A stretch of 64,000 nucleotides of DNA, from assembly GCF_963675165.1 (NCBI RefSeq), contig NC_087381.1, positions 992,001 through 1,056,000 on the forward strand, read 5' to 3'. The notes under the pieces are model-generated. The model had not been told where the DNA came from. It saw only the letters and a list, made by a program, of their open reading frames with translations, and did no database searches. Shown here piece after piece: positions 10,118 through 58,249 of the stretch. The position numbers and the translations under genes were made by a program. Within the stretch, counting starts at the first letter, position 1. Every line of letters begins with the position of its first letter. This DNA is from Halichondria panicea (taxonomy: Eukaryota > Porifera > Demospongiae > Suberitida > Halichondriidae).

Positions 10118-10559
10118 ACGATACAACTAAGATATAATTATAACAGAGCAACCTAGTATACGTATATGAATGTGTACATAAACTTTTTTCTTCACCTGAT
10201 AATTATGATAGTCATTATTAGCTTTACTTGTCTCAGTCATGTACTGTATGGTTTCATTTTCAATCAAGATTTATTGCAGCCAATCTTTCCCTCCTCACGG
10301 TTGCGCCCTCAGGCTCGATGGGTTTACTGCTACAAGTATACCTATATAATTATAATCTATGTATCAATCTCGTCCTCCACACTGTACAATTGTATATTTA
10401 TACAGGTGTTTGAATAACAGAAGCTGCATGTGTAGTTGTGATAGCTATTCCCCCATGCATCCATATACACTTGTTTACATGGAATTAGAAAGTGATAATG
10501 TCAAAATGAGAAAGTTCAGAGTATAGATAGCTAGATCATTAATTTTACACTTATTCAAG
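10118..10559 (+). promoter_or_regulatory. Short intergenic region between two array genes
   Basis: The 3' flank of the preceding gene (CAACTAAGATATAATTATAACAGAG) is the uninterrupted form of a site that holds a 139-base element at 17689. The recurrent CAATCTTTCCCTCCTC segment follows, and the forkhead-like block is at 10469-10482, about 80 bases before the next start. Confidence 0.5.
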
Positions 10560-12059
10560 ATGAAGTACAAGCTGCGATATTTCTACTCAAAAGAAGCTTT
10601 TCTAGTTCTTGTGTGGATAATGCTTATAACATCAGCAATGAATATCTTATTTCATGTGCTCAGCAATTCATGGAGAATCAAAGCCTATCATCCCTACAGT
10701 GATCAAACTCTTCTTCTGATACCGATGATTGCCTTTATCCCCATAGCGGGCTGGCTAGCTGATGTACAGTATAGAAACTTCAAGTTGTTTATCGGTGTAT
10801 TGCTATTATTTGTCTCAAGGGTATTGACCTGCATTTGTCTGATAATTCAACACGAAGGAGTTAATATGACTGTTGCTAGGGTTGTTGTAACTGCAGCTGT
10901 GTTAGTTGCGTATCTTGGATTTAGTGCATGCGCAGTAACAGCTCTTCAGCTGGGCTTGGACCGGATGCCAGATGCTTTGTCTGACAACATTATAAGTTTT
11001 ATCAAATGGTTGATTTTCTCAACTGATTATCTTTGGTGTATGGATTAGTGAGATTATTTTATATCCTGTGCTTTCATACATCCTTACAATGAGTTTGTTT
11101 TCTTTAGTCTCTATCCAGTGTTTGCTATGAGCATTTTGTGCTGTAGTATTTTTCTTTTAGCCCCAAAATGGCTAATAATTGAACCAAAATCACCTCAGTC
11201 CCTCAAAATCATCTGCCAAGTTCTCAAGTTTGCAGTCAAGCACAAAGCTCCACTCAATCGCAGTGCTCTCACATACTGGGAGGAAGACAAACCTTCAAGA
11301 ATGGACCTTGGAAAGTCCAGATACGGTGGTCCATTCACTACAGAGCAAGTTGAAGATGTGAAAACGTTCTTTAAGATTATTGTTATCCAAATACCACTTT
11401 TCTTTTGTCTCATTATCATCTAGGAAATTACATGAACATCTTGATTCCCCACCATTATCCTCTATCGACAAATGCACTGCTTCACTTATTAGTCTCACAT
11501 ATAATACCCGTGTGTCTGTGTAATGTTAGTAACTCTTATCTCAGAATTTATAGTCTATCCTCTAGTTAAAATGGAACCACCAAGTATCCTTAAACAGATT
11601 GGATTTGCTTGCTTCATTATTGTGATAGCAAATATAGGGATATTGAGTGCAGAAGTTGTGAGGTATTATCGTGATATTCAAAATTGGATCGCAATAGCTA
11701 GTTCAATAATTGGCGGTCTCGTTAACTTCTCCTTTTTGACAAACTGTATTCTGTTGTTTGCTTGTGCGCAATCTCCATATAACATGCGTGGTCTATTGGT
11801 GGGATTTGCATTATTACTTCATGCTTCATCATTAGGCCTTGGTGAACTTTTCTTCGTTATCACGAATAAGTTTTGCGACAAATGCTACAACTATATAATA
11901 TATTCATCAGTCATGGTAGCGATTACATTGTTTGGATTCATCCTGTACTGCCTCCTGGCTCGCTGGTACAAAAGGAGAGTTAGAGACGAAGAATACAATG
12001 CACACAGAGTGGTGGAGGAGGTTTACGATCGATATCTTTCCAACGACATGTATCACTGA
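10560..12059 (+). pseudogene. POT/SLC15-like transporter, multiply frameshifted
   Basis: The normal start is at 10560 and the terminal TGA at 12057-12059. The lesions are as follows. Near 11025 in TM5 there is a four-base insertion (CTGATTATC where relatives have CTATC). Around 11060 in the TM5-TM6 loop about 12 bases are missing. Near 11405 in TM7 one base is inserted, producing TAG at 11421-11423. The TM1-TM2 loop is of the NNSW subtype. The C-terminal third (11523-12059) is open and nearly identical to functional copies. Three independent disabling changes make this a clear pseudogene. Confidence 0.85.
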
Positions 12060-12084
12060 ACGTTTAACTCATGACAATGTATAA

Positions 12085-13023
12085 CCCTTTCCTTGCCATT
12101 TGTGAAATCTGGAACAGGAGCGTCTTTAGGTCGATCAATTAGTGTGGATCCGGCCTCACCACGCCTCCATGTCATTCTAGTCTAGATCCGGCTAGCAATT
12201 CTAGCTGGGACTCCCAGTTCTAGCTCGTTTTGTTTAGCGTGTCAGAGACTGGGAGAAGATGATTGGCACTCCTTGGCTCCTTTGGATGTACAGCTGTCCA
12301 GATCCCTAGAACATACCCTCCATTCTGACGAGTTATCAGTGCATAGGGTGCTTACTAGATTCTTGCCAGCCAGTACAGTTCAAGCTACACACAGCACCGC
12401 TCAACTATTCTCTACCCCATTATCTAGCTAAATCTGGTCCAACTAGACAGCAGACACAGCTAGTTAATTCAGTAAAGCCAGGGGTAGCTGTACTTCTACG
12501 GTTGTTCAGTACCCACGGTAACAATTCCTCTGGGCTGGGCTAACTAGTTGAGCCACGCCTCCCAATTCTCAAGGCTAGGTACATGTCTCTGTCTAGCTGC
12601 TTCTTCAGCTTCTTGCTCAGTTTTGTGGCTTAGAGAAAGGCCAGCTACTCAGGGGGAAGAGTCGAGATGAAAGTCTGGCAGCCAGGTGACGTCCAAACGG
12701 TCAGTTATTCTTTCCACCAACTTTTTAATTTAGTCTAGTCCTGCTTGCACTGCTACTACTACTGCTACTCTTCCTACTACTACTGCTGCTACTCTTCCTA
12801 GCTAGTCAAAGGTTTCTTTTTTTTTTTTTATAACTACATATGCACAAAGAGACATCAAAGCTTACATCAAAGGACACAGATTTTTAGCCTACTTGACTGA
12901 TAAGGCCGTTACCTAGACTACAGTTTGTTTGTCAGGGAGGAGCTCACATACAACTTCATCTAATTCATCATAACGATTCGTTACCGTTGTTGTAATTTCT
13001 ACAACAGATTGCCAAGGAAAGAG
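12085..13023. mobile_element. 939-bp DNA transposon relic inserted in a gene 3' flank
   Basis: The short inverted ends (CCCTTTCCTTGCCA and TGCCAAGGAAAGAG) are flanked by ATAA at 12081-12084 and 13024-13027. The same 3' flank without the insertion reads GACAATGTATAATAACTTAC at about 34336 and 59925, giving exact empty sites. The interior includes a CTACTACTG/CTCTTCCTA microsatellite (12745-12800) and a T-run near 12825. No transposase is recognised. Confidence 0.8.
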
Positions 13024-14087
13024 ATAATAACTTACATGTATATCCATTTTTTGTTTTTGCAACCTTTAGTGAGTGAGTATGTGTTCACATAGTATTAGCT
13101 TCTGTTAGTATAGTCACTGTGTGCATTTCCACTTCATCAAACTAACTTTGCCCTCGGGGCTGCGGCCTCAATATCGATAATCAATACAGCCATACACTTT
13201 TAGAACCATGTATGGTTACAGGTATATAACTATTTAATTTTTGCATGCTACTATGATTTTTATCCCACTCTGTCCAATCGAGCTATTGTATTTATATATC
13301 ATCCCCACACTCAAGAGGAACAGACCTTCCATCTGCTGGCAGAGACGCCAGAGGACATGATATACTGGGTGCATGCCCTGAGGTGTATGGGTATAGTGTG
13401 GGGTGGGTCGTGCATGGACTAATATATGTGGGTGTGGGGGCGGGGCTAGGAGGTGTTTTAAGGGGAGGTAGAAAAGCTAACTTTGATGACTCGTAACTTG
13501 AATTTGGTGCATGCAATCTGAATATGAAAAACTTAGATGCTTTATCTTGGGCTGTGTAAATTTTAATGTATGCATAGCATAGTGTTTGCTTGAAATAGCC
13601 TGCCCTGTTTCAGTAGGTGTGTTATCATTCACTAGATGTGTGTCCTTAAATCAGCACTAACATTTTGTTACAATATTTCACCAAAGAATTTCTTTGTGTG
13701 TGAAATACTGATTTAAATCACCTTGTGTCAATGATCTTGTTTAAAAGGCGTACTTGTCAAATTAGACATCAATTTTGGCCCATTTTTCATATACTATAGC
13801 CATCATCTATATATGTCACATGCAGGTTGGTTAATCATACATTTGCAGCTATGGAGCAGCAATAATCAATCACATAATTATAGTCACTCCCCTCCTGCTG
13901 TGATGATTGCTGAGTCAGCGAATAATTATGTGTAGCTCTAATTATGGTACTCTGCACAATTAGTGCATGCATGTCGTAAGAATATAAAATTATTCGGCTA
14001 AAGATCTGGCAATTGCTCCCTTTTTTAATTATTTTGCTATTGTTTTTTCGACGTTGAATGAGTTCTCTCTCTGTACCTATATATAAT
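13024..14087 (+). other. 3' spacer module and distal upstream module
   Basis: This holds the standard 3' flank (TTTTTGCAACCTTTAGTGAG near 13050), the truncated PH-exon relic at 13297-13382 and the GTTTCAGTAGGTGTGTTATC segment near 13608. The MARE-like TGCTGAGTCAGC is at 13908-13919. Confidence 0.5.
13297..13382 (+). pseudogene. PH-domain exon relic, 5'-truncated (copy 2)
   Basis: Only the 3' part of the exon remains, encoding YHPHTQEEQTFHLLAETPED and then MIYWVHALR, followed by the donor-like AG/GTGTATGG. The acceptor side is replaced by spacer sequence. The conserved Trp of the PH C-terminal helix is present. Confidence 0.6.
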
Positions 14088-14636
14088 CCGACTAGAAAAA
14101 CATTTGCAATGTGAAAAATTGCTAGGATTGGCCAGGGGAACCACAAAAAAGCGTGGAAACAAGAAATCCGACGAGAGCATAACTCCAATCCGTTACAACG
14201 TCAATCACATGTACTTGTAGTTTTCCATTTTTTCCTGGCCAATATAATAATACCACGCAATTTTTACTGGTGGGGTGATGACCAATCCCTATATATATTT
14301 ATTATACATCCATTTTGTGCGGGCATAATTATAATCATGATGATTTGTGATGAATTGATGTTCCTAATACATGCAGTGTTGAGCACAGGTACACACAGTC
14401 CATCCATGCGTAGTAACATGCACGGACCGTACTGGTGACCTGCATGGAATGATGTGGTGGATGAAGCTGGTAGAGATGGATCTGGAACACAGTCTATATA
14501 CTATGTATTGTACATGTTTATGACGTTGTAACGGATTGGAGTTATGCTCTCGTCGGATTTCTTGTTTCCACGCTTTTTTGTGGTTCCCCTGGCCAATCCT
14601 AGCAATTTTTCACATTGCAAATGTTTTTCTAGTCGG
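14088..14636. mobile_element. 549-bp foldback element with perfect 115-bp inverted ends
   Basis: The left arm (14088-14202) and right arm (14522-14636) are exact reverse complements by eye, beginning CCGACTAGAAAAACATTTGC. Between them lie 319 bases with no gene. Small ORFs starting MELCSRRISC on both strands are mirror images caused by the arms. It sits in a larger insertion (14088-15458) that splits the TATATATAAT/ATATATTTGCTGAC segment of the upstream module. Confidence 0.75.
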
Positions 14637-15458
14637 ATTCCCTTTCTTTTTCAATACAAGTGGAACGTCAAGAGGCAGTACAGAAGTTCAAGAAGAGAAG
14701 ACAGGACTAATCAGATATCTTCTCGAATATCTCTGGACTAATAATTATACTGAGTAATATTGCTTGATATGTTGAATTTGTGAATCAGTATTAAAATTAA
14801 TGACAGCCATTTTAAGAGCATGATATATATAGCCAGTGCATATAGCATGCTTGTCAGAGAAAGGGAGCTAGAACTGAACAGTGTGAAGAAAAGCAACACC
14901 TCCAGGTTCTGGAACCGGAAAAGCACTGCACTGATTTTAGGCGCACGGTTTCTTAGCCACGCCTATCTGCAATTGCTGAGTCATTAAAGATGGCGGAATT
15001 GTCTAGGTAAGAGAAATAGAGACTGAGAGGTCATCTGCCTCATGGAAGCAATCGCAAATCTGAAGAAGCGCTTTGTAATCCAGGTTGTAGTCGTTTGGAA
15101 ACCCTGTGCAGAATGTCCTGGAGAGGGCTGTACTTGGAGCAAATGCTGGGCAAGAAACTTACTCACTTACTCACTTACTCACTTACTTACTTAGTCAGTC
15201 AGACAAAGAGCGGTGAAACGTCGAAATAGTGCAATTTTTAAAATGACAATATTCATACATTTAAAATGTTCATGGATTATGAAATGAGAGATACAAAGAG
15301 AGAAAAGGCTAAATAAACTATCTGTCCATTCAGTTTCTTGATGTGGCCTTTCCCTGCAGAGATAGAACAGTTTGAACATGAGTCAAAATAAGTGAAATTT
15401 TGCTAAACACAGGCAAACCCACTGCCAATCCTATGTAAAACCTACTGGTTTTACTAAT
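14637..15458. other. Remainder of the insertion splitting the upstream module
   Basis: This sequence is absent from the homologous upstream modules near 6340 and 49520. It includes a CTTACTCA tandem repeat at about 15160-15195. No protein family is recognised. With 14088-14636 it forms a composite insertion bounded by AAT on both sides (about 14085-14087 and 15456-15458). Confidence 0.45.
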
Positions 15459-16167
15459 ATATATTTGCTGACTTGGCAATAACACTGTACTCTCGAGACT
15501 TATGTAATTGCTAATCGCTCTGTACCACACCTACCTGCCGTACCTCTGCTGATTTGCAATACATGTGATCAATTCATGTACTGTGAAGTTAGTCATTATA
15601 AGTATAGGATATACCACACCTAAGAGGAGGATATGCACCCATATATCCTCCGCTACAACATGTTGACTCCTACAGATGCTCAAGAGTTTCCTTGGTCCAA
15701 GCGTTGACCATTCGACGTCCCTTACTGGAGTTGCAAGCTCTTCTTGGATAAAATGTATCTAAACCGCGCCCATGGACCCATGGAAGCTTAGCCATCTTGT
15801 TGGAGAGCACCTTCCGTGTTTCTGCCGTCGCTTTGAGTCTTAGTACCGTCAGGCATGGCTCTTTTCTCTTTGCTTACTTTCTTGAACAAATGAAAAAACT
15901 AAAAAACAACTTGAAAAACTGTGCATGCCTGGGGCTGTATGCTAATATTCTATATATCCTACAGCTGTTGACCAATGAGATCAATTTGTGGTGACGTAAG
16001 TGTGGTATAATTACGTATCATGGCCATTCATAACAATACTTGTTTACATAGAAAGTATATACTGCCAACATGAGTATACATTTACCCCAGTTTACATAAT
16101 ACAGTTTGGAGTTTAGATGCTAGATAGTACATTTATAGCACAAAAACACTTCTATACAAGAGAAAAG
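15459..16167 (+). promoter_or_regulatory. Upstream region of the intact gene at 16168
   Basis: The distal module resumes here (ATATTTGCTGACTTGGCAATAA) and is interrupted by a 404-base insertion at 15602-16005. It ends with the forkhead-like block ACTTGTTTACATAGAAAGT at 16038-16056, about 112-130 bases before the start codon. The conserved 5' leader CACTTCTATACAAGAGAAAAG abuts the ATG. Confidence 0.55.
15602..16005. mobile_element. 404-bp insertion with TATAA flanks
   Basis: TATAA is present at 15597-15601 and 16006-16010. The uninterrupted site GTCATTATAATTACG occurs at several other upstream modules (for example near 6475 and 49657). The ends show weak inverted similarity (ATACCACACC and GTGTGGTAT). 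A related fragment containing TTTCTGCCGTCGCTT occurs near 20286. Confidence 0.7.
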
Positions 16168-17676
16168 ATGAAGTACAAGCTGCGATATTTCTACTCAAAA
16201 GGAGCTTTCCTAGTTCTTGTTTGGATGATGCTTATAATATCAGCAATGAGTTTCCTATTTCGTATTTTCACCAAATCAGGGACCATTATCTCCTATCCTC
16301 ACTACAAGGATCAGAGATTTCTTCTGATACCGATTATTGCCATTATCCCCATAGCGGGCTGGCTAGCTGATGTACGATATGGAAACTTTAAGGTTTTTAG
16401 GTTCGGTGCAGTACTATTATTTGTTTCAACGATAATGACCGGCATTTGTTTGATCATTAAAGAAGAGGGAGTTCATCCAACTGTTACTATGGTTGCTATA
16501 ACTGCAGCTGTGTTAGTTGCGTATCTTGGAGTTAGTGCATGCGCAGTAACAGCTCTTCAGCTAGGCTTGGATCAGATGCCAGATGCTTCGTCTGACAATA
16601 TTATAAGTTTTATTAAATGGTTCATTTTCTCAGCTCTCTTTGGTGTATGGATTAGTGACATTATCTTTAAAATTACAGTATCCTGTGCTTTCATAGATCC
16701 TGATAATGAGTTCATTATCTTTAGTCTCTACCCAATGCTTGCTATGAGCATTCTGTGCTGTAGTCTTTTTCTTTTAGCCCCAAAATGGCTAATAATTGAA
16801 CCAAATTCCCCTCAGTCCCTCAAAATCATCTACCAAGTTCTCAAGTTTGCAGCCAAGCACAAAGCTCCCCTAAATCGCAGTGCTCTCACATACTGGGAGG
16901 AAGACATACCTTCAAGAATGGACCTGGGAAAGTCGAGATACGGTGGACCATTCACTACAGAGCAAGTTGAAGATGTGAAAACATTCTTTAAGATTATTGT
17001 TATCCAAATACCACTGTTTATTGTCTCATTGTCATCTCGGAAAATATATGTACATCTTGATCGCCCACTATCGTCATCACTCAACAAATGCACTGCTTCA
17101 CTTATTAGTCATTTCACATATCATCCTTTTGTCTGTGCAATGTTTGTAATACTTATCTCCGAATTTGTAGTCTATCCTCTGGTTAAAATGGAACCTCCAA
17201 GTATCCTGAAACAGATTGGATTTGCTTGCTTCATCATTGCGGTAGCAAATATAGGAATATTGAGTGCAGAAGTAGTGAGCTATTTCCATGATATACAAAA
17301 GTGGATTGAAATAGCTACTTCAATAATTGACGGTCTTTTTTATGCGTCCTTTTTGACAAACTCAATCCTGTTGTTTGCTTGTGCACAATCTCCATATAAC
17401 ATGCGTGGTCTATTGGCGGGATTTGCGTTTTTACTTCATTTCTCATCATTACTCCTTGGTGAACTTTTCTTCAGTATCACGATCAAGCTTTGCGACAAAT
17501 GCTACAACTATATAATATATTCGTCAGTCATGGTAGCGATCACATTGTTTGGATTCATCCTGTACTGCCTCCTGGCTCGCTGGTACAAAAAGAGAGTTAG
17601 AGACGAGGAATACAATGCACACAGAGTGGTGGAGGAGGTCTATGATCGATACCTTTCCAACGACATGTATCACTGA
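16168..17676 (+). CDS. POT/SLC15-like 12-helix membrane transporter (intact)
   Basis: This is an intact 502-codon ORF in the POT/PTR branch of the major facilitator superfamily, predicted at a cell or vesicle membrane. Family evidence, in order: LADVRYGNFK (67-75, the GG..aD...g TM2-3 loop), LGLDQMPDASSDN (132-144, the DQ motif before TM5), LNRSAL and GGPFTTEQVEDVK in the long cytosolic 6-7 loop (235-271), PSILKQI before TM9, AQSPYNMRG before TM11 (406-414) and a charged tail. The canonical ExxER glutamates before TM1 and the Asn of FYxxINxG are missing, so substrate and proton coupling are uncertain. An in-frame ATG exists at 16117, but I chose 16168. It matches the conserved leader, and two paralogues have an in-frame TAG just three codons upstream of the equivalent ATG. 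Its repeat at 24324-25832 is probably the same gene. Confidence 0.85.
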   Translation: MKYKLRYFYSKGAFLVLVWMMLIISAMSFLFRIFTKSGTIISYPHYKDQRFLLIPIIAIIPIAGWLADVRYGNFKVFRFGAVLLFVSTIMTGICLIIKEEGVHPTVTMVAITAAVLVAYLGVSACAVTALQLGLDQMPDASSDNIISFIKWFIFSALFGVWISDIIFKITVSCAFIDPDNEFIIFSLYPMLAMSILCCSLFLLAPKWLIIEPNSPQSLKIIYQVLKFAAKHKAPLNRSALTYWEEDIPSRMDLGKSRYGGPFTTEQVEDVKTFFKIIVIQIPLFIVSLSSRKIYVHLDRPLSSSLNKCTASLISHFTYHPFVCAMFVILISEFVVYPLVKMEPPSILKQIGFACFIIAVANIGILSAEVVSYFHDIQKWIEIATSIIDGLFYASFLTNSILLFACAQSPYNMRGLLAGFAFLLHFSSLLLGELFFSITIKLCDKCYNYIIYSSVMVAITLFGFILYCLLARWYKKRVRDEEYNAHRVVEEVYDRYLSNDMYH

Positions 17677-17688
17677 ACAATACAACTA

Positions 17689-17827
17689 CACTGTAAAAAA
17701 TGGTGTGTGGTTTTGACGCAAGTGCGTGACTATTGTGGCAATTATCAGGAAAAAACGCAAGAAAAACGCACGTTTGCCACAATAGCCACGCACTCTGCGT
17801 CAAAACCACACATCATTTTTTACAGTG
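17689..17827. mobile_element. 139-bp hairpin MITE just after the stop codon
   Basis: The inverted ends are CACTGTAAAAAATG.. and ..CATTTTTTACAGTG, continued by GTGTGGTTTTGACGCA on both arms. TA flanks are at 17687-17688 and 17828-17829. Paralogues lack it (CAACTAAGATATAATT at about 10124 and 53050). It begins 12 bases after the TGA, so it is probably transcribed in the 3' UTR and would fold as a long hairpin. Confidence 0.75.
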
Positions 17828-18473
17828 TAAGCATAACAGAGTAACCTAGTATATGAATGTGTTCATAAATGTTTTTCTTCACATAATTTATGATAGTCAT
17901 TATTAGCTTTACTTGTCTCTTAGTACATACAGTCATGCACTGTATGGTTTCATTTTCAATCAAGATTTATTACAGCCAATCTTTCCGTCCTCACGGTTGC
18001 GTCCTCGGGCTCGATGGGTTTACTGCTAAAAGTATACCCATATATAATCTATGTATTGTATCGATCTCATCCTCCACACTGTCCAATCGAGGCTATGATT
18101 AGTTATACAGGTAGTTGAATAACAGAAGTAGTTTTGATAGATTCTACCATTCACATACAATACTTGAAAATACAGGTGGTTGAATAACAGAAGTAGTTTT
18201 GATAGATTCTACCATTCACATACAATACTTGAAAATACAGGTGGTTGAATAACAGAAGTAGTTTTGATAGATTCTACCATTCACATACAATACTTGAAAA
18301 TACAGGTGGTTGAATAACAGAAGCTGTGTAGTTGTGATAGCTATTCCCCCATGCATCCATACATACAATTACTACTTGTTTACATAGAAATATAAAGTGA
18401 TAATGTCAAAATGAGAAAGTTTAGAGTATAGCTAGCTAGATCATTAATTTTACACTTATTCAAAAAGAAAAAG
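17828..18473 (+). other. Spacer with a 65-bp tandem repeat and promoter block
   Basis: This holds the 3' flank of the intact gene, then the CAATCTTTCCGTCCTCACGG segment. The tandem repeat is at 18115-18324 and the forkhead-like ACTTGTTTACATAGAAA at 18374-18388, roughly 90 bases before the next start. Confidence 0.5.
18115..18324 (+). repeat. 65-bp tandem repeat, three copies plus a partial
   Basis: Repeat units begin TTGAATAACAGAAGTAGTTT at 18115, 18180 and 18245, with a partial fourth at 18310. Each ends AATACTTGAAAATACAGGTGG. The copies look identical, so the amplification is recent. Confidence 0.9.
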
Positions 18474-19983
18474 ATGAAGTACAAGCTGCGATATTTCTAC
18501 TCAAAAGGAGCTCTTCTAGTTCTTGTGTGGATAATGCTTATAATTATATAACATCAGCAATGAATTTCTTATTTCGTATGCTCAATAATTCATGGAAAAT
18601 CAAAACCTATCATCCCTACAATGATCAAACACTACTTCTGATACCGATGATTGCCATTATCCCCATAGCGGGCTGGCTAGCTGATGTACGGTATGGAAAC
18701 TTCAAGGTGTTTAGGTTCGGTCCAGTACTATTATTTGTCTCAGCGGTATTGACCTGCATTTGTTTGATTATTGAAGACGAAGGAGTTCATCCGACTGTTG
18801 CTATGATTGCCATAACTGCAGCTGTGTTAGTTGTGTATCTTGGAGCTAGTGCATGCGCAGTAACAGCTCTTCAGCTAGGCTTGGATCAGATGCCAGATGC
18901 TTCGTCTGACAACATTATAAGTTTTATCGAGTGATTCATTTTCTCAGCTATCTTTGGTGTATGGATTAGTGGTATTATTAAACAGTACAGTATCTTGTGC
19001 TTTCGTAGATCCTGATAATGATTTCATTTTCTTTAGTCTCTACCCAGTGCTTGCTATGAGTATTCTGTGCTGTAGTATTTTTCTTTTAGCCCCAAAATGG
19101 CTAATAATTGAACCAAAGCCACCAAACTCCCTCAGAACTATCTACCAAGTTCTCAAGTTTGCAGCCAACAAAGCTCCACTCAATCGCAGTGCTCTCACAT
19201 ACTGGGAGGAAGACATACCTTCAAGAATGGACCTGGGAAAATCTAGATACGGTGGTCCATTCACTACAGAGCAAGTTGAAGATGTGAAAACGTTCTTCAA
19301 GATTATTGTTATCCAAAATACCGTTGTTTTTTGTCTCCTTATCATCTCGGAAATTTCATGTACATCTTGATTCCCAACGATTACCGTCTATCGACAAATG
19401 CACTGCTTCACTTATTAGTCTCACATATCACCCGTGTGTCTGTGCAATGTTAGTAACGTTTATCTCAGAATTTATAGTCAATCCTCTGGTTAAAATGGAA
19501 CCACCAAGTATCCTGAAGCAGATTGGATTTGCTTGCTTCATCATTGTGGTAGCAAATATAGGGATATTGAGTGCAGAAGTTGTGAGCTATTTCCATGATA
19601 TACAAATTTGGATTGAAATAGCTAGTTCAATAATTGGTGGTCTTGTTCACTTTTCGCTCTTGACAAACTCAATTCTGTTGTTTGCTTGTGCGCAATCTCC
19701 ATATAACATGCGTGGTCTATTGGCGGGATTTGCATTTTTACTTCATACTTCATCATTAGGCCTTGGTGAACTCTTATTCAGTGTCGCGATCAAACTTTGT
19801 GACAAAAGCTACAACTATATAATTTATTCGTCAGTCATGGTAGCGATTATTTTGTTTGGATTCATCCTGTACTGCCTCCTGGCTCGCTGGTACAAAAGGA
19901 GAGTTAGAGACGAGGAATACAATGCACACAGAGTGGTGGAGGAGGTCTATGATCGATACCTTTCCAATCACATGTATCACTGA
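18474..19983 (+). pseudogene. POT/SLC15-like transporter, multiply disrupted
   Basis: The normal start at 18474 is followed by an 8-base insertion in TM1 (ATAATTATATAACATC where relatives read ATAACATC). In-frame TGA replaces the TGG of IKWF at about 18932-18934. Indels are present near 18970. Three bases are missing at AANKAPL (AAKHKAPL in relatives), and one extra base near 19315 breaks TM7. The terminal TGA is at 19981-19983. The TM1-TM2 loop is of the NNSW subtype (NNSWKIKTYHPYNDQ). The last 675 bases are open and almost unchanged. Its repeat at 26630-28139 is part of the putative false duplication. Confidence 0.85.
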
Positions 19984-20455
19984 ACAATACAACTATTATA
20001 ACAGAGCAACCTAGTATACGTATATATCATAAACGTTTTTCTTCACATGATTATGATAGTCATTACTAGCTTTATTTGTCTTTTAGTATGTACATACATA
20101 CATATACATGCAGTCATGCACTGTGTGGTTTCAATTTCAATCAAGATTATTACAGCCAATCTTTCCCTCCTCTGGGTTGCGCCCTCAGGCTTGATGGGTT
20201 TACTGCTATAAGTACCTATATAATTATAATCTATGTATCGATCTCGTCCTCCACACTGTCCAATGTTAGAGAGCAGCTTCTGCGTTTCTGCCGTCGCTTG
20301 GAGTCACCTTCAAGCATGACGCCTTTCTGTTTGCTTACTTTCTTGAAAACTGTGCACCTGCATTATGAACTCTTGGTATTATGTATTGTATCATTATACG
20401 GGTGTTTGACAGAAGGTGTGTATATAGTTCTGATAGCTATTCCCCAATTCATCCA
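19984..20455 (+). other. 3' spacer of the pseudogene
   Basis: This contains the usual 3' flank and CAATCTTTCCCTCCTC segment. Near 20264-20360 is a fragment related to the 404-base insertion at 15602-16005 (shared TTTCTGCCGTCGCTT and TTGCTTACTTTCTTGAA). No gene is seen. Confidence 0.5.
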
Positions 20456-20536
20456 TACACACTTGTTTACATGGAAATAGAAAGTGATAATGAGTATAGC
20501 TAGCTAGCTAGATCACACTTAGAAAAAGATGAAGTA
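20456..20536 (+). pseudogene. Promoter and start-codon stub of a lost array gene
   Basis: The forkhead-like block (ACTTGTTTACATGG at about 20458), the AGCTAGCTAGATCA segment and the leader AGAAAAAGATGAAGTA are present. The homology stops abruptly eight bases into the coding sequence, giving ATG-AAG-TAG. The rest of the gene has been replaced by unrelated hairpin-rich sequence. Confidence 0.65.
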
Positions 20537-20899
20537 GGAATGTGCAAAAATGCCTGCAAGCAGGTTGGTATAATTTACCGACAGTTCTATGGCCACTCGT
20601 CACTAGAATGTTTAAGACAACTCTACATCTCACTTGCACTGTAAAAAGAGATGTGCCATTACAGCACGCGTGTAGCGTGTTACACATGTGCCAAACTGCT
20701 TAAAGTGTGTTATTTACCCTCTAGAAAGGTTTATCACAGCTAAAAGTATGTCGTTTTGACCCACTGAATGAAAACGACCCATTACACATGTGTCGTTTCT
20801 TATGTACATTACATATAAACATGATTGTTACAAGTGATAACACAATCACTTGTAAAAATCATACTTCATATGTCCCCCTGGCCCTGGTAACAAAATAAT
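20537..20899. other. Hairpin-rich spacer up to the assembly gap
   Basis: Several short palindromes occur here: GTCGTTTT..AAAACGAC near 20747-20775, ACACATGTGT near 20783, and ACAAGTGAT..ATCACTTGT near 20828-20853. A GCACTGTAAAAAG segment resembles the end of the hairpin MITE at 17689. It is probably transposon-derived, with no gene seen. Confidence 0.4.
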
Positions 20900-21099
20900 N
20901 NNNNNNNNNNNNNNNNNNNNNNNNNNNNNNNNNNNNNNNNNNNNNNNNNNNNNNNNNNNNNNNNNNNNNNNNNNNNNNNNNNNNNNNNNNNNNNNNNNNN
21001 NNNNNNNNNNNNNNNNNNNNNNNNNNNNNNNNNNNNNNNNNNNNNNNNNNNNNNNNNNNNNNNNNNNNNNNNNNNNNNNNNNNNNNNNNNNNNNNNNNN
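20900..21099. other. Assembly gap (200 N)
   Basis: Exactly 200 undetermined bases, a conventional placeholder length and not a measured gap. Confidence 0.99.
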
Positions 21100-21452
21100 T
21101 CACATACAACTTCATCTAATTCATCATAACGATTCGTTACCGTTGTTGTAATTTCTACAACAGATTGCCAAGGAAAGAGATAATAACTTACATGTATATC
21201 CATTTTTTGTTTTTGCAACCTTTAGTGAGTGAGTATGTGTTCACATAGTATTAGCTTCTGTTAGTATAGTCACTGTGTGCATTTCCACTTCATCAAACTA
21301 ACTTTGCCCTCGGGGCTGCGGCCTCAATATCGATAATCAATACAGCCATACACTTTTAGAACCATGTATGGTTACAGGTATATAACTATTTAATTTTTGC
21401 ATGCTACTATGATTTTTATCCCACTCTGTCCAATCGAGCTATTGTATTTATA

Positions 21453-21538
21453 TATCATCCCCACACTCAAGAGGAACAGACCTTCCATCTGCTGGCAGAG
21501 ACGCCAGAGGACATGATATACTGGGTGCATGCCCTGAG
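21453..21538 (+). pseudogene. PH-domain exon relic (repeat of 13297-13382)
   Basis: Identical to the truncated relic at 13297-13382 and inside the putative false duplication. Confidence 0.55.
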
Positions 21539-22243
21539 GTGTATGGGTATAGTGTGGGGTGGGTCGTGCATGGACTAATATATGTGGGTGTGGGGGCGGG
21601 GCTAGGAGGTGTTTTAAGGGGAGGTAGAAAAGCTAACTTTGATGACTCGTAACTTGAATTTGGTGCATGCAATCTGAATATGAAAAACTTAGATGCTTTA
21701 TCTTGGGCTGTGTAAATTTTAATGTATGCATAGCATAGTGTTTGCTTGAAATAGCCTGCCCTGTTTCAGTAGGTGTGTTATCATTCACTAGATGTGTGTC
21801 CTTAAATCAGCACTAACATTTTGTTACAATATTTCACCAAAGAATTTCTTTGTGTGTGAAATACTGATTTAAATCACCTTGTGTCAATGATCTTGTTTAA
21901 AAGGCGTACTTGTCAAATTAGACATCAATTTTGGCCCATTTTTCATATACTATAGCCATCATCTATATATGTCACATGCAGGTTGGTTAATCATACATTT
22001 GCAGCTATGGAGCAGCAATAATCAATCACATAATTATAGTCACTCCCCTCCTGCTGTGATGATTGCTGAGTCAGCGAATAATTATGTGTAGCTCTAATTA
22101 TGGTACTCTGCACAATTAGTGCATGCATGTCGTAAGAATATAAAATTATTCGGCTAAAGATCTGGCAATTGCTCCCTTTTTTAATTATTTTGCTATTGTT
22201 TTTTCGACGTTGAATGAGTTCTCTCTCTGTACCTATATATAAT

Positions 22244-22792
22244 CCGACTAGAAAAACATTTGCAATGTGAAAAATTGCTAGGATTGGCCAGGGGAACCAC
22301 AAAAAAGCGTGGAAACAAGAAATCCGACGAGAGCATAACTCCAATCCGTTACAACGTCAATCACATGTACTTGTAGTTTTCCATTTTTTCCTGGCCAATA
22401 TAATAATACCACGCAATTTTTACTGGTGGGGTGATGACCAATCCCTATATATATTTATTATACATCCATTTTGTGCGGGCATAATTATAATCATGATGAT
22501 TTGTGATGAATTGATGTTCCTAATACATGCAGTGTTGAGCACAGGTACACACAGTCCATCCATGCGTAGTAACATGCACGGACCGTACTGGTGACCTGCA
22601 TGGAATGATGTGGTGGATGAAGCTGGTAGAGATGGATCTGGAACACAGTCTATATACTATGTATTGTACATGTTTATGACGTTGTAACGGATTGGAGTTA
22701 TGCTCTCGTCGGATTTCTTGTTTCCACGCTTTTTTGTGGTTCCCCTGGCCAATCCTAGCAATTTTTCACATTGCAAATGTTTTTCTAGTCGG
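22244..22792. mobile_element. Foldback element (repeat of 14088-14636)
   Basis: Same perfect 115-bp inverted arms as 14088-14636, at +8156. Confidence 0.7.
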
Positions 22793-23757
22793 ATTCCCTT
22801 TCTTTTTCAATACAAGTGGAACGTCAAGAGGCAGTACAGAAGTTCAAGAAGAGAAGACAGGACTAATCAGATATCTTCTCGAATATCTCTGGACTAATAA
22901 TTATACTGAGTAATATTGCTTGATATGTTGAATTTGTGAATCAGTATTAAAATTAATGACAGCCATTTTAAGAGCATGATATATATAGCCAGTGCATATA
23001 GCATGCTTGTCAGAGAAAGGGAGCTAGAACTGAACAGTGTGAAGAAAAGCAACACCTCCAGGTTCTGGAACCGGAAAAGCACTGCACTGATTTTAGGCGC
23101 ACGGTTTCTTAGCCACGCCTATCTGCAATTGCTGAGTCATTAAAGATGGCGGAATTGTCTAGGTAAGAGAAATAGAGACTGAGAGGTCATCTGCCTCATG
23201 GAAGCAATCGCAAATCTGAAGAAGCGCTTTGTAATCCAGGTTGTAGTCGTTTGGAAACCCTGTGCAGAATGTCCTGGAGAGGGCTGTACTTGGAGCAAAT
23301 GCTGGGCAAGAAACTTACTCACTTACTCACTTACTCACTTACTTACTTAGTCAGTCAGACAAAGAGCGGTGAAACGTCGAAATAGTGCAATTTTTAAAAT
23401 GACAATATTCATACATTTAAAATGTTCATGGATTATGAAATGAGAGATACAAAGAGAGAAAAGGCTAAATAAACTATCTGTCCATTCAGTTTCTTGATGT
23501 GGCCTTTCCCTGCAGAGATAGAACAGTTTGAACATGAGTCAAAATAAGTGAAATTTTGCTAAACACAGGCAAACCCACTGCCAATCCTATGTAAAACCTA
23601 CTGGTTTTACTAATATATATTTGCTGACTTGGCAATAACACTGTACTCTCGAGACTTATGTAATTGCTAATCGCTCTGTACCACACCTACCTGCCGTACC
23701 TCTGCTGATTTGCAATACATGTGATCAATTCATGTACTGTGAAGTTAGTCATTATAA

Positions 23758-24161
23758 GTATAGGATATACCACACCTAAGAGGAGGATATGCACCCATAT
23801 ATCCTCCGCTACAACATGTTGACTCCTACAGATGCTCAAGAGTTTCCTTGGTCCAAGCGTTGACCATTCGACGTCCCTTACTGGAGTTGCAAGCTCTTCT
23901 TGGATAAAATGTATCTAAACCGCGCCCATGGACCCATGGAAGCTTAGCCATCTTGTTGGAGAGCACCTTCCGTGTTTCTGCCGTCGCTTTGAGTCTTAGT
24001 ACCGTCAGGCATGGCTCTTTTCTCTTTGCTTACTTTCTTGAACAAATGAAAAAACTAAAAAACAACTTGAAAAACTGTGCATGCCTGGGGCTGTATGCTA
24101 ATATTCTATATATCCTACAGCTGTTGACCAATGAGATCAATTTGTGGTGACGTAAGTGTGG
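23758..24161. mobile_element. 404-bp TATAA-flanked insertion (repeat of 15602-16005)
   Basis: Same element and flanks as at 15602-16005, at +8156. Confidence 0.65.
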
Positions 24162-24323
24162 TATAATTACGTATCATGGCCATTCATAACAATACTTGTT
24201 TACATAGAAAGTATATACTGCCAACATGAGTATACATTTACCCCAGTTTACATAATACAGTTTGGAGTTTAGATGCTAGATAGTACATTTATAGCACAAA
24301 AACACTTCTATACAAGAGAAAAG

Positions 24324-25832
24324 ATGAAGTACAAGCTGCGATATTTCTACTCAAAAGGAGCTTTCCTAGTTCTTGTTTGGATGATGCTTATAATATCAGC
24401 AATGAGTTTCCTATTTCGTATTTTCACCAAATCAGGGACCATTATCTCCTATCCTCACTACAAGGATCAGAGATTTCTTCTGATACCGATTATTGCCATT
24501 ATCCCCATAGCGGGCTGGCTAGCTGATGTACGATATGGAAACTTTAAGGTTTTTAGGTTCGGTGCAGTACTATTATTTGTTTCAACGATAATGACCGGCA
24601 TTTGTTTGATCATTAAAGAAGAGGGAGTTCATCCAACTGTTACTATGGTTGCTATAACTGCAGCTGTGTTAGTTGCGTATCTTGGAGTTAGTGCATGCGC
24701 AGTAACAGCTCTTCAGCTAGGCTTGGATCAGATGCCAGATGCTTCGTCTGACAATATTATAAGTTTTATTAAATGGTTCATTTTCTCAGCTCTCTTTGGT
24801 GTATGGATTAGTGACATTATCTTTAAAATTACAGTATCCTGTGCTTTCATAGATCCTGATAATGAGTTCATTATCTTTAGTCTCTACCCAATGCTTGCTA
24901 TGAGCATTCTGTGCTGTAGTCTTTTTCTTTTAGCCCCAAAATGGCTAATAATTGAACCAAATTCCCCTCAGTCCCTCAAAATCATCTACCAAGTTCTCAA
25001 GTTTGCAGCCAAGCACAAAGCTCCCCTAAATCGCAGTGCTCTCACATACTGGGAGGAAGACATACCTTCAAGAATGGACCTGGGAAAGTCGAGATACGGT
25101 GGACCATTCACTACAGAGCAAGTTGAAGATGTGAAAACATTCTTTAAGATTATTGTTATCCAAATACCACTGTTTATTGTCTCATTGTCATCTCGGAAAA
25201 TATATGTACATCTTGATCGCCCACTATCGTCATCACTCAACAAATGCACTGCTTCACTTATTAGTCATTTCACATATCATCCTTTTGTCTGTGCAATGTT
25301 TGTAATACTTATCTCCGAATTTGTAGTCTATCCTCTGGTTAAAATGGAACCTCCAAGTATCCTGAAACAGATTGGATTTGCTTGCTTCATCATTGCGGTA
25401 GCAAATATAGGAATATTGAGTGCAGAAGTAGTGAGCTATTTCCATGATATACAAAAGTGGATTGAAATAGCTACTTCAATAATTGACGGTCTTTTTTATG
25501 CGTCCTTTTTGACAAACTCAATCCTGTTGTTTGCTTGTGCACAATCTCCATATAACATGCGTGGTCTATTGGCGGGATTTGCGTTTTTACTTCATTTCTC
25601 ATCATTACTCCTTGGTGAACTTTTCTTCAGTATCACGATCAAGCTTTGCGACAAATGCTACAACTATATAATATATTCGTCAGTCATGGTAGCGATCACA
25701 TTGTTTGGATTCATCCTGTACTGCCTCCTGGCTCGCTGGTACAAAAAGAGAGTTAGAGACGAGGAATACAATGCACACAGAGTGGTGGAGGAGGTCTATG
25801 ATCGATACCTTTCCAACGACATGTATCACTGA
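24324..25832 (+). CDS. POT/SLC15-like transporter (duplicate of 16168-17676)
   Basis: The translation is identical to the gene at 16168-17676 over all 502 residues, and the flanks are identical too. It is intact, but because it lies in the block that repeats exactly up to the gap it is probably the same locus counted twice. If the duplication were real it would be extremely recent. Motifs and start choice are as for the first copy, with an in-frame upstream ATG at 24273. Confidence 0.7.
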   Translation: MKYKLRYFYSKGAFLVLVWMMLIISAMSFLFRIFTKSGTIISYPHYKDQRFLLIPIIAIIPIAGWLADVRYGNFKVFRFGAVLLFVSTIMTGICLIIKEEGVHPTVTMVAITAAVLVAYLGVSACAVTALQLGLDQMPDASSDNIISFIKWFIFSALFGVWISDIIFKITVSCAFIDPDNEFIIFSLYPMLAMSILCCSLFLLAPKWLIIEPNSPQSLKIIYQVLKFAAKHKAPLNRSALTYWEEDIPSRMDLGKSRYGGPFTTEQVEDVKTFFKIIVIQIPLFIVSLSSRKIYVHLDRPLSSSLNKCTASLISHFTYHPFVCAMFVILISEFVVYPLVKMEPPSILKQIGFACFIIAVANIGILSAEVVSYFHDIQKWIEIATSIIDGLFYASFLTNSILLFACAQSPYNMRGLLAGFAFLLHFSSLLLGELFFSITIKLCDKCYNYIIYSSVMVAITLFGFILYCLLARWYKKRVRDEEYNAHRVVEEVYDRYLSNDMYH

Positions 25833-25844
25833 ACAATACAACTA

Positions 25845-25983
25845 CACTGTAAAAAATGGTGTGTGGTTTTGACGCAAGTGCGTGACTATTGTGGCAATTA
25901 TCAGGAAAAAACGCAAGAAAAACGCACGTTTGCCACAATAGCCACGCACTCTGCGTCAAAACCACACATCATTTTTTACAGTG
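25845..25983. mobile_element. 139-bp hairpin MITE (repeat of 17689-17827)
   Basis: Same TA-flanked hairpin 12 bases after the stop codon, at +8156. Confidence 0.7.
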
Positions 25984-26270
25984 TAAGCATAACAGAGTAA
26001 CCTAGTATATGAATGTGTTCATAAATGTTTTTCTTCACATAATTTATGATAGTCATTATTAGCTTTACTTGTCTCTTAGTACATACAGTCATGCACTGTA
26101 TGGTTTCATTTTCAATCAAGATTTATTACAGCCAATCTTTCCGTCCTCACGGTTGCGTCCTCGGGCTCGATGGGTTTACTGCTAAAAGTATACCCATATA
26201 TAATCTATGTATTGTATCGATCTCATCCTCCACACTGTCCAATCGAGGCTATGATTAGTTATACAGGTAG

Positions 26271-26480
26271 TTGAATAACAGAAGTAGTTTTGATAGATTC
26301 TACCATTCACATACAATACTTGAAAATACAGGTGGTTGAATAACAGAAGTAGTTTTGATAGATTCTACCATTCACATACAATACTTGAAAATACAGGTGG
26401 TTGAATAACAGAAGTAGTTTTGATAGATTCTACCATTCACATACAATACTTGAAAATACAGGTGGTTGAATAACAGAAGC
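26271..26480 (+). repeat. 65-bp tandem repeat (repeat of 18115-18324)
   Basis: Same three units plus a partial, at +8156. Confidence 0.85.
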
Positions 26481-26629
26481 TGTGTAGTTGTGATAGCTAT
26501 TCCCCCATGCATCCATACATACAATTACTACTTGTTTACATAGAAATATAAAGTGATAATGTCAAAATGAGAAAGTTTAGAGTATAGCTAGCTAGATCAT
26601 TAATTTTACACTTATTCAAAAAGAAAAAG

Positions 26630-28139
26630 ATGAAGTACAAGCTGCGATATTTCTACTCAAAAGGAGCTCTTCTAGTTCTTGTGTGGATAATGCTTATAAT
26701 TATATAACATCAGCAATGAATTTCTTATTTCGTATGCTCAATAATTCATGGAAAATCAAAACCTATCATCCCTACAATGATCAAACACTACTTCTGATAC
26801 CGATGATTGCCATTATCCCCATAGCGGGCTGGCTAGCTGATGTACGGTATGGAAACTTCAAGGTGTTTAGGTTCGGTCCAGTACTATTATTTGTCTCAGC
26901 GGTATTGACCTGCATTTGTTTGATTATTGAAGACGAAGGAGTTCATCCGACTGTTGCTATGATTGCCATAACTGCAGCTGTGTTAGTTGTGTATCTTGGA
27001 GCTAGTGCATGCGCAGTAACAGCTCTTCAGCTAGGCTTGGATCAGATGCCAGATGCTTCGTCTGACAACATTATAAGTTTTATCGAGTGATTCATTTTCT
27101 CAGCTATCTTTGGTGTATGGATTAGTGGTATTATTAAACAGTACAGTATCTTGTGCTTTCGTAGATCCTGATAATGATTTCATTTTCTTTAGTCTCTACC
27201 CAGTGCTTGCTATGAGTATTCTGTGCTGTAGTATTTTTCTTTTAGCCCCAAAATGGCTAATAATTGAACCAAAGCCACCAAACTCCCTCAGAACTATCTA
27301 CCAAGTTCTCAAGTTTGCAGCCAACAAAGCTCCACTCAATCGCAGTGCTCTCACATACTGGGAGGAAGACATACCTTCAAGAATGGACCTGGGAAAATCT
27401 AGATACGGTGGTCCATTCACTACAGAGCAAGTTGAAGATGTGAAAACGTTCTTCAAGATTATTGTTATCCAAAATACCGTTGTTTTTTGTCTCCTTATCA
27501 TCTCGGAAATTTCATGTACATCTTGATTCCCAACGATTACCGTCTATCGACAAATGCACTGCTTCACTTATTAGTCTCACATATCACCCGTGTGTCTGTG
27601 CAATGTTAGTAACGTTTATCTCAGAATTTATAGTCAATCCTCTGGTTAAAATGGAACCACCAAGTATCCTGAAGCAGATTGGATTTGCTTGCTTCATCAT
27701 TGTGGTAGCAAATATAGGGATATTGAGTGCAGAAGTTGTGAGCTATTTCCATGATATACAAATTTGGATTGAAATAGCTAGTTCAATAATTGGTGGTCTT
27801 GTTCACTTTTCGCTCTTGACAAACTCAATTCTGTTGTTTGCTTGTGCGCAATCTCCATATAACATGCGTGGTCTATTGGCGGGATTTGCATTTTTACTTC
27901 ATACTTCATCATTAGGCCTTGGTGAACTCTTATTCAGTGTCGCGATCAAACTTTGTGACAAAAGCTACAACTATATAATTTATTCGTCAGTCATGGTAGC
28001 GATTATTTTGTTTGGATTCATCCTGTACTGCCTCCTGGCTCGCTGGTACAAAAGGAGAGTTAGAGACGAGGAATACAATGCACACAGAGTGGTGGAGGAG
28101 GTCTATGATCGATACCTTTCCAATCACATGTATCACTGA
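26630..28139 (+). pseudogene. POT/SLC15-like pseudogene (duplicate of 18474-19983)
   Basis: This copy carries exactly the same series of lesions as 18474-19983: the 8-base insertion in TM1, the TGA in place of Trp before TM5, the indels and the extra base in TM7. Sharing all of these supports the view that the two are one locus represented twice. Confidence 0.75.
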
Positions 28140-28611
28140 ACAATACAACTATTATAACAGAGCAACCTAGTATACGTATATATCATAAACGTTTTTCTTC
28201 ACATGATTATGATAGTCATTACTAGCTTTATTTGTCTTTTAGTATGTACATACATACATATACATGCAGTCATGCACTGTGTGGTTTCAATTTCAATCAA
28301 GATTATTACAGCCAATCTTTCCCTCCTCTGGGTTGCGCCCTCAGGCTTGATGGGTTTACTGCTATAAGTACCTATATAATTATAATCTATGTATCGATCT
28401 CGTCCTCCACACTGTCCAATGTTAGAGAGCAGCTTCTGCGTTTCTGCCGTCGCTTGGAGTCACCTTCAAGCATGACGCCTTTCTGTTTGCTTACTTTCTT
28501 GAAAACTGTGCACCTGCATTATGAACTCTTGGTATTATGTATTGTATCATTATACGGGTGTTTGACAGAAGGTGTGTATATAGTTCTGATAGCTATTCCC
28601 CAATTCATCCA

Positions 28612-28692
28612 TACACACTTGTTTACATGGAAATAGAAAGTGATAATGAGTATAGCTAGCTAGCTAGATCACACTTAGAAAAAGATGAAGTA
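28612..28692 (+). pseudogene. Promoter/start-codon stub (repeat of 20456-20536)
   Basis: Same ATG-AAG-TAG stub as at 20456-20536, followed by the same hairpin-rich spacer. Confidence 0.55.
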
Positions 28693-29055
28693 GGAATGTG
28701 CAAAAATGCCTGCAAGCAGGTTGGTATAATTTACCGACAGTTCTATGGCCACTCGTCACTAGAATGTTTAAGACAACTCTACATCTCACTTGCACTGTAA
28801 AAAGAGATGTGCCATTACAGCACGCGTGTAGCGTGTTACACATGTGCCAAACTGCTTAAAGTGTGTTATTTACCCTCTAGAAAGGTTTATCACAGCTAAA
28901 AGTATGTCGTTTTGACCCACTGAATGAAAACGACCCATTACACATGTGTCGTTTCTTATGTACATTACATATAAACATGATTGTTACAAGTGATAACACA
29001 ATCACTTGTAAAAATCATACTTCATATGTCCCCCTGGCCCTGGTAACAAAATAAT

Positions 29056-56541: not shown

Positions 56542-56766
56542 ACAATTAACTCTATGCACGCGATAACTATAATGATTATTGCATGCATGTAGTATACATT
56601 ATACTTAGCCTATAGTGTGTGTTCATTTGAATTGTTTCTCTTCATATTCATAGATATAGATACTTTAATTTGTACAGTCATGCATGCATTGAGTATGGTT
56701 ACATTTTCAACCAATTAACCAACATTTTATTCAACATCCTCCACCAATTGATAGAGCTATTGTGCA

Positions 56767-56903
56767 GTCGGCGTATAGCAGAGTCCCCAAAAGCATCAGC
56801 TCAGTTGTGAATTCACATCCCATCCCCATATACAAGAGGAACAGATATTCCACCTGCTGGCAGAGACACAAGAGGACTTGAGATACTGGGTGCATGGCCT
56901 GAG
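56767..56903 (+). pseudogene. PH-domain exon relic, frameshifted (copy 7)
   Basis: The region is flanked by an altered acceptor (GTGCAG) and a donor-like GAG/GTGTGTGG. One base is missing in the CCAAAAAGCATC run (GTCCCCAAAAGCATC), which breaks the frame after YSRVPK. The 3' part still encodes EEQIFHLLAETQEDLRYWVH. It is a decayed exon copy. Confidence 0.6.
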
Positions 56904-58052
56904 GTGTGTGGTGTGGGTGGGCGTGCACAGACTAAAGTGTGTGGGTGTGGAGGCGAAAATAAATGTTGAGGACTCGAAATTGAATTTAGTGCATGCAATC
57001 TGAATATGAAAAACTCGCTATAATAGTGAGTTCTTTTTATCTTGTAGTGTGTTCATTTTAATGTATGGTATAGTGTTTGCTTTGATTGAAATAGCCTGCC
57101 CTGTTTCAGTAGGTGTGTTATCATTCACTAGCTGTGTGTCTTTAAATCAGCACTAACATTTTGTCAAAAACTTTCAATATTCACCGAATAATTTTTCTTT
57201 GTGTGAAATCACCTTTGTCGATGACCTTGTTCACAAGGCGTACTGGTCCAAGACATCAATGTTGGCCCATTTTTCCATTGCATGCTAACCCAATCAAACC
57301 ACACACAATACCCTAGTGAAACCCCTCCCCTTTTTCACATAATAGTCGGAATGTGCAGGGGATTCTTGATGTTTTTGTTTTGGCAACTTCACAGTAACTC
57401 TTGTAACTGCAGGGCGACACCTATATTAGGACATGATGAGGTTGGTACCAAACTGTAGAGTACACCCTCGGCTACACTAAAAGATCTTTCGAGGAGTGCT
57501 GACGAAACCTTAAAAGTATCGAACCCCGGTTAGGGGAAATTTTGTGCTAAAGTCAATTACTGCATGTGTGAGCTATATTCGATTGGCTTCTAAATGCAAA
57601 ATTAAAAATAAATTCTCCCCTTAGCCACACCCCCAGATACGTGCAAACAAGCTTCAGTATTTTTGTAAGAAAGAGATGAATACGAAACTAACTAATCACC
57701 TAGCTATGTCAAAATGTCACAGGTTTGTTCATTATGTACATACATTAGCAATCAGAGTGGCAATTTTACGTAGTCACTCCTGTGTGTGCTGTGATGATTG
57801 CTGAGTCAACGAATATGTGTAGTTATGTAGCTCAGCGCAATGACTGTATACCTTAGCCTAGAGGTGATGAGGCAATTGCTTCCTGTTTTTCTGACACTGC
57901 ATGAGTTCTCTGCACATATAATTATATATTTGCTGACACAGCAATAATCACACCTGCGGGCATGCCCTACTTTTGATCCATGTGATCAAGCTAGTGTTGT
58001 ATATACATTATAATCATGGCCATGGATCAAGTTTTAGTTTTGATACATTTAC

Positions 58053-58249
58053 CAGTGGCGGATATAAGCCCTGGAAAATTATGCTGGCATAATTTGGGGC
58101 ATAATAGGTTAATTAGGTTATTCTGCTGGTATAATTGGGGCATAATAGTTATACCGGCTATAAGCACCCATTTGAGGGTTTTAGTACAAATGTAATGGTC
58201 CTCTGCTGCTGCTGAAGTAGTGAAATGTTGGTACCTGGATCCGCCACTG
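58053..58249. mobile_element. 197-bp hAT-like MITE
   Basis: The ends CAGTGGCGGAT and ATCCGCCACTG are inverse; such CAGTGGCGGA termini are common in hAT-derived MITEs of invertebrates. The target duplication is not clear by eye. GGCATAATAG occurs as an internal direct repeat. Confidence 0.6.

What the first reader, a model, noticed from the sequence alone, without database searches (positions are those of the whole stretch)
12944..29055. Exact ~8-kb repeat whose boundaries coincide with a 200-N gap: probable false duplication
12944-20899 and 21100-29055 agree at a constant offset of 8156. The first ends at the last base before the gap and the second begins at the first base after it. Both pseudogenes carry the same lesions, and even the 65-bp tandem repeat has the same copy number. 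A suffix equal to a prefix at a scaffold join is the signature of two overlapping contigs that were not merged. Gene counts from this assembly would be inflated by one intact gene, one pseudogene and several relics.
Basis: partly seen in the sequence, partly recalled or inferred. Interest (0 to 1): 0.8.

Follow-up and report, generated by a model that had tools for sequence, protein, structure and literature searches.

The report
Unmerged contig overlap mimicking tandem duplication
An exactly repeated 8-kb stretch on both sides of a sequencing gap is most likely one piece of a genome written twice by the assembly software, an ordinary assembly error that would add one false gene copy to a gene cluster that really is duplicating nearby.

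Summary
Window 12944-20899 and 21100-29055 are identical over 7,956 of 7,956 bases, and their inner ends touch the only gap, 200 N at 20900-21099. In the surrounding 194 kb there is one gap and one 100% pair. Both block edges fall inside interspersed elements whose other fetched copies run straight through the matching positions. Identity carries on 916 bp past the pseudogene, which speaks against crossing-over between the two nearest gene copies.

The same array holds a gap-free pair 57 kb apart with 4 mismatches in 8,000 bp, and a gap-free tandem pair (8.3-kb offset) with 54 mismatches in 7,942 bp. A real, unresolved recent duplication would leave the same mark (0.17). Only raw reads can decide. 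The block carries one intact frame and one pseudogene of an SLC15A4-like family. Merging would lower the count of family frames of at least 440 codons in the array from 22 to 21.

The parts
12944..20899 (+). Block 1: end of the upstream contig, 7,956 bp, identical to block 2
   Evidence: 0 differences; ends at the last base before the gap
20900..21099 (.). Scaffold gap of 200 N, the only N run in C5:962001-1156000
21100..29055 (+). Block 2: start of the downstream contig, the same 7,956 bp
   Evidence: begins at the first base after the gap
12080..13028 (+). Interspersed element with short inverted ends (TE1, about 946 bp). Block 1's left edge, 12944, lies inside it; contig 2 starts with only its last 83 bp or so
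   Evidence: six of six fetched copies run through the position corresponding to 12944 at 98.0-98.5% identity
28793..30005 (+). Interspersed element (TE2) crossing block 2's right edge (29055/29056); in block 1 it is cut off at the gap (from 20637)
   Evidence: of two fetched copies, the C14 copy (L007) is colinear across the edge at 93% and the C3 copy (L008) at 91%
16117..17676 (+). Intact SLC15A4-like open frame, 519 codons (block 1)
24273..25832 (+). The same frame in block 2
18453..19980 (+). Pseudogene of the same family, pieces in shifted frames (block 1)
26609..28136 (+). The same pseudogene in block 2
18105..18323 (+). 65-bp tandem repeat, 3.4 copies (block 1)
26261..26479 (+). 65-bp tandem repeat, 3.4 copies (block 2)

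Best explanation
This is a false duplication made by the assembly. The true locus probably holds the 7,956 bp once. Two contigs read from the same DNA ended (20899) and began (21100) at arbitrary read ends, and so shared 7,956 bp. The assembler did not join them, probably because its graph branched inside this array of similar genes. A scaffolder then set them side by side, in the right order and orientation, with a fixed 200-N spacer. Shown: exact identity, contact of both inner ends with the gap, edges in mid-element, and no third copy among the scored matches. Inferred: the single true copy, the reason for the break, and the use of a long-read assembler plus a Hi-C scaffolder.
For:: 7,956 of 7,956 bases identical, both inner ends flush with the only gap; 1 gap in 194,000 bp, and the only 100% pair among 1,105 self-alignments of 1.2 kb or more sits on it; the next-longest exact direct repeat is 2,838 bp; the outer edges of both blocks are natural, because other element copies run through 12943/12944 (6 of 6 fetched) and 29055/29056 (2 of 2 fetched), while each inner edge cuts an element in the middle; the 1-kb neighbourhoods of the block's two ends share no repeat that could have mediated a duplication (longest perfect match 11 bp; one of 14 bp with a mismatch); identity continues 916 bp beyond the stop of the pseudogene (19983), so the repeat does not end in the gene homology that crossing-over between the nearest copies would use. 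(passages): homotype false duplications occur at contig boundaries and are about a read long; gaps between the copies are a mark of false duplication.
Against: The array really does duplicate. A gap-free pair 57 kb apart has 4 mismatches and no indel over 8,000 bp, and a gap-free tandem pair with an 8.3-kb offset has 54 mismatches over 7,942 bp. In phased human assemblies gaps cluster at long, highly identical duplications, so a real identical duplication could itself be the cause of this gap; the same paper estimates that 86% of extra contig alignments there are true copy-number variants and only about 1.6 of 15.4 Mb per haplotype are likely false (PMC10234299, abstract and passages; that count is not restricted to copies flush with a gap). 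The natural outer edges would also be seen if a larger real unit were duplicated. No reads, coverage or assembly graph could be examined. A second cluster of the same family had no gap in 60,000 bp, so I could not test whether other gaps of this assembly show the same overlap.
Confidence: 0.78

Rival explanations
1. A real, very recent tandem duplication, on one or both haplotypes, with a unit of at least 7,956 bp. The assembler could not resolve it, so the contigs end inside the repeat. The true copy number is then two or more and the gene count is not inflated.
For: The array duplicates: gap-free pairs with 54 mismatches in 7,942 bp (8.3-kb tandem offset) and with 4 mismatches in 8,000 bp (57 kb away). 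Gaps prefer long, identical duplications, and most extra contig alignments in phased human assemblies were judged true (PMC10234299, passages). An unresolved loop in an assembly graph would also give contigs with identical suffix and prefix (reasoning, not tested).
Against: Zero differences would be unusual even for a pair as young as the 57-kb one: about e^-4, or 0.02, if the same number were expected. A simple duplication whose unit is the block would need both contigs to stop exactly at its junction. Crossing-over between the nearest flanking copies (10557-12056 and 18453-19980, 88% alike) would not carry identity 916 bp past the second copy, nor start it inside TE1. The block ends share no homology. 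A larger unit with ends further out is not excluded.
Confidence: 0.17
2. Two haplotypes placed in tandem (heterotype false duplication): block 1 and block 2 are the two alleles.
For: Such errors were the commoner kind in most of the assemblies studied in PMC9516828 (passages; its older hummingbird assembly is an exception).
Against: Alleles would normally differ, and here there are 0 differences in 7,956 bp. No diverged copy was seen on the small contigs: all listed matches of five block and flank queries are on C1-C17 (only 38-40 candidates were scored per query).
Confidence: 0.04

Closest known systems
Homotype false duplication at a contig boundary (Vertebrate Genomes Project, PMC8081667; PMC9516828; passages)
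   Same: Duplicate pair on one scaffold with a gap between the copies, at contig ends, without allele-specific differences
   Different: Read depth and k-mer multiplicity, which define the class in those papers, could not be measured here. Those papers name read errors or, in one example, an assembler bug as the cause; here no error is visible and an unmerged exact overlap is inferred
Recent segmental duplication in a tandem gene array (the pair at C5:975263-991539)
   Same: Similar unit length, same array and gene family, directly repeated
   Different: That pair has 54 mismatches and 6 indel events and no gap
SLC15A4-type transporters (content of the block)
   Same: A profile of 7 window proteins matches solved chains named solute carrier family 15 member 4, E 1.7e-10, over profile positions 111-424
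   Different: No Pfam family above its cut-off in 9 translated stretches, 5 of them partial frames; function untested

Membership tests
Homotype false duplication | Gap between the two copies on one scaffold | tested here: met
   200 N, flush with both inner ends, the only gap in 194 kb
Homotype false duplication | No allele-specific differences between the copies | tested here: met
   0 of 7,956
Homotype false duplication | Located at contig boundaries | tested here: met
   both copies end on the N run, read here as the contig ends
Homotype false duplication | About as long as a sequence read | tested here: inconclusive
   7,956 bp; the read length of this project is unknown, and that this suits an overlap of usual long reads is recalled
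Homotype false duplication | Read depth below the expected level over the copies; abnormal k-mer copy number | not testable with these tools
   no raw reads available
Real tandem duplication | An assembled junction between copy 1 and copy 2 | tested here: not met
   the 200-N gap stands in its place
Real tandem duplication | Recombination substrate at the ends of the unit (usual, not required) | tested here: inconclusive
   none for a unit equal to the block (longest perfect match 11 bp); a larger unit with ends elsewhere is not excluded
SLC15A4-like transporter family | Significant profile match to the family | tested here: met
   E 1.7e-10 to SLC15A4 chains; no Pfam match above cut-off
SLC15A4-like transporter family | Transporter fold | tested here: inconclusive
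   model mean pLDDT 37.3, too poor for a fold search

The most novel reading that the evidence does not exclude
The 7,956 bp is a real tandem duplication so young that no base has changed, the newest step in an array of SLC15A4-like single-frame genes that is still duplicating (pairs nearby with 0.05% and 0.7% mismatches over about 8 kb), and possibly polymorphic between haplotypes.
Probability: 0.17. Interest if true: 0.3.

Novelty: not a real feature. Interest (0 to 1): 0.12.

Why it matters
It matters mainly as a correction. Anyone counting members of this family, or dating its expansion by the youngest pair, would take an assembly error for the newest gene. The method carries over: in a duplicating array identity alone cannot separate a true copy from a false one. 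Flush contact with the gap and edges in mid-element are more informative, and reads settle it.

Tried and rejected
Coincidence of a block edge with a transposon end, considered because high-copy matches began near 12081: rejected, since 12944 lies inside the element and not at its end. Crossing-over between repeats at the two block ends: no shared homology found. Crossing-over between the two nearest gene copies: disfavoured, because identity runs past both of them. Haplotype pair: disfavoured by zero differences.

Attempts that led nowhere: naming the species or finding its genome note (listings and abstract openings only, 30 of 1,108, 0 and 20 of 22 papers listed; none of the sponge notes listed has a span of 131 Mb; that this is a sponge is my guess, untested). 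Relatives in the prokaryote and viral collections (73 and 9 pattern matches, none confirmed). A structure model was too poor to use (mean pLDDT 37.3). A second gap in this assembly as a control: none in 60,000 bp of a related cluster. An rRNA search meant to lead to other gaps failed twice by machine error. Paper searches for the same overlap pattern or gap size in HiFi assemblies gave none, 1, 26 (12 listed) and 1 papers. Of these PMC10234299 (passages) is used above, PMC12134992 (passages) shows 200-N gaps in a hifiasm plus YaHS assembly, and PMC8952263 (passages) was not informative.

Full report
What is there. The window lies at C5:992001-1056000 of an unnamed assembly of 131,455,214 bases in 39 contigs. 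Bases 12944-20899 and 21100-29055 are identical at 7,956 of 7,956 positions, and the window's only N run, 20900-21099, touches both inner ends. The 65-bp tandem array has 3.4 copies in each block. The intact frame and the broken copy are the same in each.

What the block contains. The array consists of uninterrupted frames of about 500 codons and of broken copies. A profile of seven window proteins matches solved SLC15A4 chains at E 1.7e-10 over profile positions 111-424, while Pfam gave no match above its cut-off for nine translated stretches. A structure model from the shallow alignment was too poor to use (mean pLDDT 37.3). In the 194 kb of C5:962001-1156000 there are 23 frames of at least 440 codons, 22 of which match the family. 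The twins at 1008117 and 1016273 are identical, so the family count would be 21 if the blocks are one.

Rarity of the pair in its neighbourhood. The 194-kb stretch holds one gap and 1,105 self-alignments of at least 1.2 kb. The only one at 100% is this pair. Of 422 exact direct repeats of 100 bp or more found (words with 50 or more copies left out), the longest is this one (7,956 bp), and the next is 2,838 bp. In the whole genome, 16100-20899 has two full-length matches, both here, and no other listed match of 1 kb or more exceeds 92% (38 of 702 candidates scored, so this is a lower bound). In the array self-comparison the closest other relative of the intact gene is 93.5% over 1,535 bp. All matches listed for the block and its flanks lie on C1-C17, none on the smaller contigs (38-40 candidates scored in each), so no spare haplotype copy was seen.

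The edges. Base 12944 lies about 83 bp before the right end of an interspersed element of about 946 bp with short inverted ends. Six of six copies fetched from other places run through that position at 98.0-98.5%. The right edge, 29055, lies inside a second element. Two of two fetched copies run through that position (28793-30005 on L007 at 93%, 28793-29812 on L008 at 91%). So block 1 has a natural left junction and a cut right edge at the gap, and block 2 a cut left edge at the gap and a natural right junction. This is what two overlapping contig ends give. A larger real unit that was left unresolved would show the same outer junctions, so the edges argue only against a duplication whose unit is the block itself.

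Could it be a real duplication? The two ends share no repeat; the longest perfect match between the 1-kb neighbourhoods is 11 bp. The nearest plausible substrates for unequal crossing-over are the copies at 10557-12056 and 18453-19980, which are 88% alike (for identity, for places). A crossing-over there would end the identity inside the second copy, yet identity runs 916 bp past its stop at 19983, up to the gap. A larger unit, with ends further out, is not excluded.

A result against relying on identity. The array really duplicates. A tandem pair with an 8.3-kb offset (975263-983230 and 983591-991539) has 54 mismatches and 6 indel events over 7,942 aligned bases. A pair 57 kb apart has 4 mismatches and no indel over the 8,000 bases from 1048698 to 1056697. 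Both are free of gaps. An exact 8-kb pair is therefore not far beyond what this array does by itself. If four differences were expected, none would be seen about one time in fifty. The weight rests on contact with the gap and on the edges.

Why I still cannot close the case. If a real unit longer than the reads were present twice and identical, the assembler could also stop on both sides inside the repeat and leave contigs that share a suffix and a prefix. In phased human assemblies gaps concentrate at the longest and most identical duplications, and 86% of extra contig alignments were judged true copy-number variants from short-read depth, with about 1.6 of 15.4 Mb per haplotype likely false (PMC10234299, abstract and passages). 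That count covers all extra alignments, not exact suffix-prefix pairs on a gap, so I left the odds as they were, but it warns against certainty. Raw reads decide, and none are available here. I give 0.78 to the false duplication, 0.17 to a real unresolved duplication and 0.04 to a pair of haplotypes.

Comparison with the literature. The Vertebrate Genomes Project describes homotype duplications that often occur at contig boundaries and are about as long as the reads (PMC8081667, passages). PMC9516828 lists gaps between duplicated pairs on one scaffold among the marks of false duplication and separates the homotype class by k-mers and low depth (passages). The marks visible in sequence are met, except read length, which is unknown; the read-based ones could not be tested. 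A 200-N gap is what a published hifiasm plus YaHS assembly carries (PMC12134992, passages). That this assembly was made in the same way is inference.

Verdict. The real biology nearby is a duplicating gene array. Of the four pairs I profiled, the youngest one without a gap is the 57-kb pair.

Noticed in passing
window 56698-64000, continuing at C5:1056001-1056697 (L012), against C5:1105869-1113868 (L016, L017): Gap-free duplicate 57,171 bp away with 4 mismatches and no indel in 8,000 bp, while the left flank drops to about 90% (54 mismatches in the 500-bp bin at 1047198). It looks like a very recent duplication or gene conversion.
   Followed up: partly
L010:3263-10000 with L011:1-1230, against L011:1591-9539 (C5:975263-991539): A gap-free tandem duplication with an 8.3-kb offset in the same array: 54 mismatches, of which 19 fall in one 500-bp bin, and 6 indel events.
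   Followed up: partly
window 12080-13028: High-copy interspersed element with ends CCCTTTCCTTG and CAAGGAAAGAG and an apparent ATAA target duplication here; 38 other copies at 96-99% listed in the genome, a lower bound, so probably recently active.
   Followed up: partly
window 14086-15459 and 22242-23615: Another high-copy element of about 1.37 kb with an internal inverted repeat of about 130 bp; dozens of scored copies at 85-99% on many chromosomes.
   Followed up: no
window 1-64000 and C5:962001-1156000: Array of SLC15A4-like uninterrupted frames (22 of at least 440 codons) mixed with broken copies; no Pfam match above cut-off although a profile finds SLC15A4. Further family members at C5:2.47-2.52 Mb, C5:2.84-2.86 Mb, C14:4.73 Mb and C15:3.77 Mb.
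   Followed up: partly
L009:6389-8959 (C5:968389-970959, minus strand): An 856-codon open frame that does not match the family's reference protein, at the upstream edge of the stretch.
   Followed up: no
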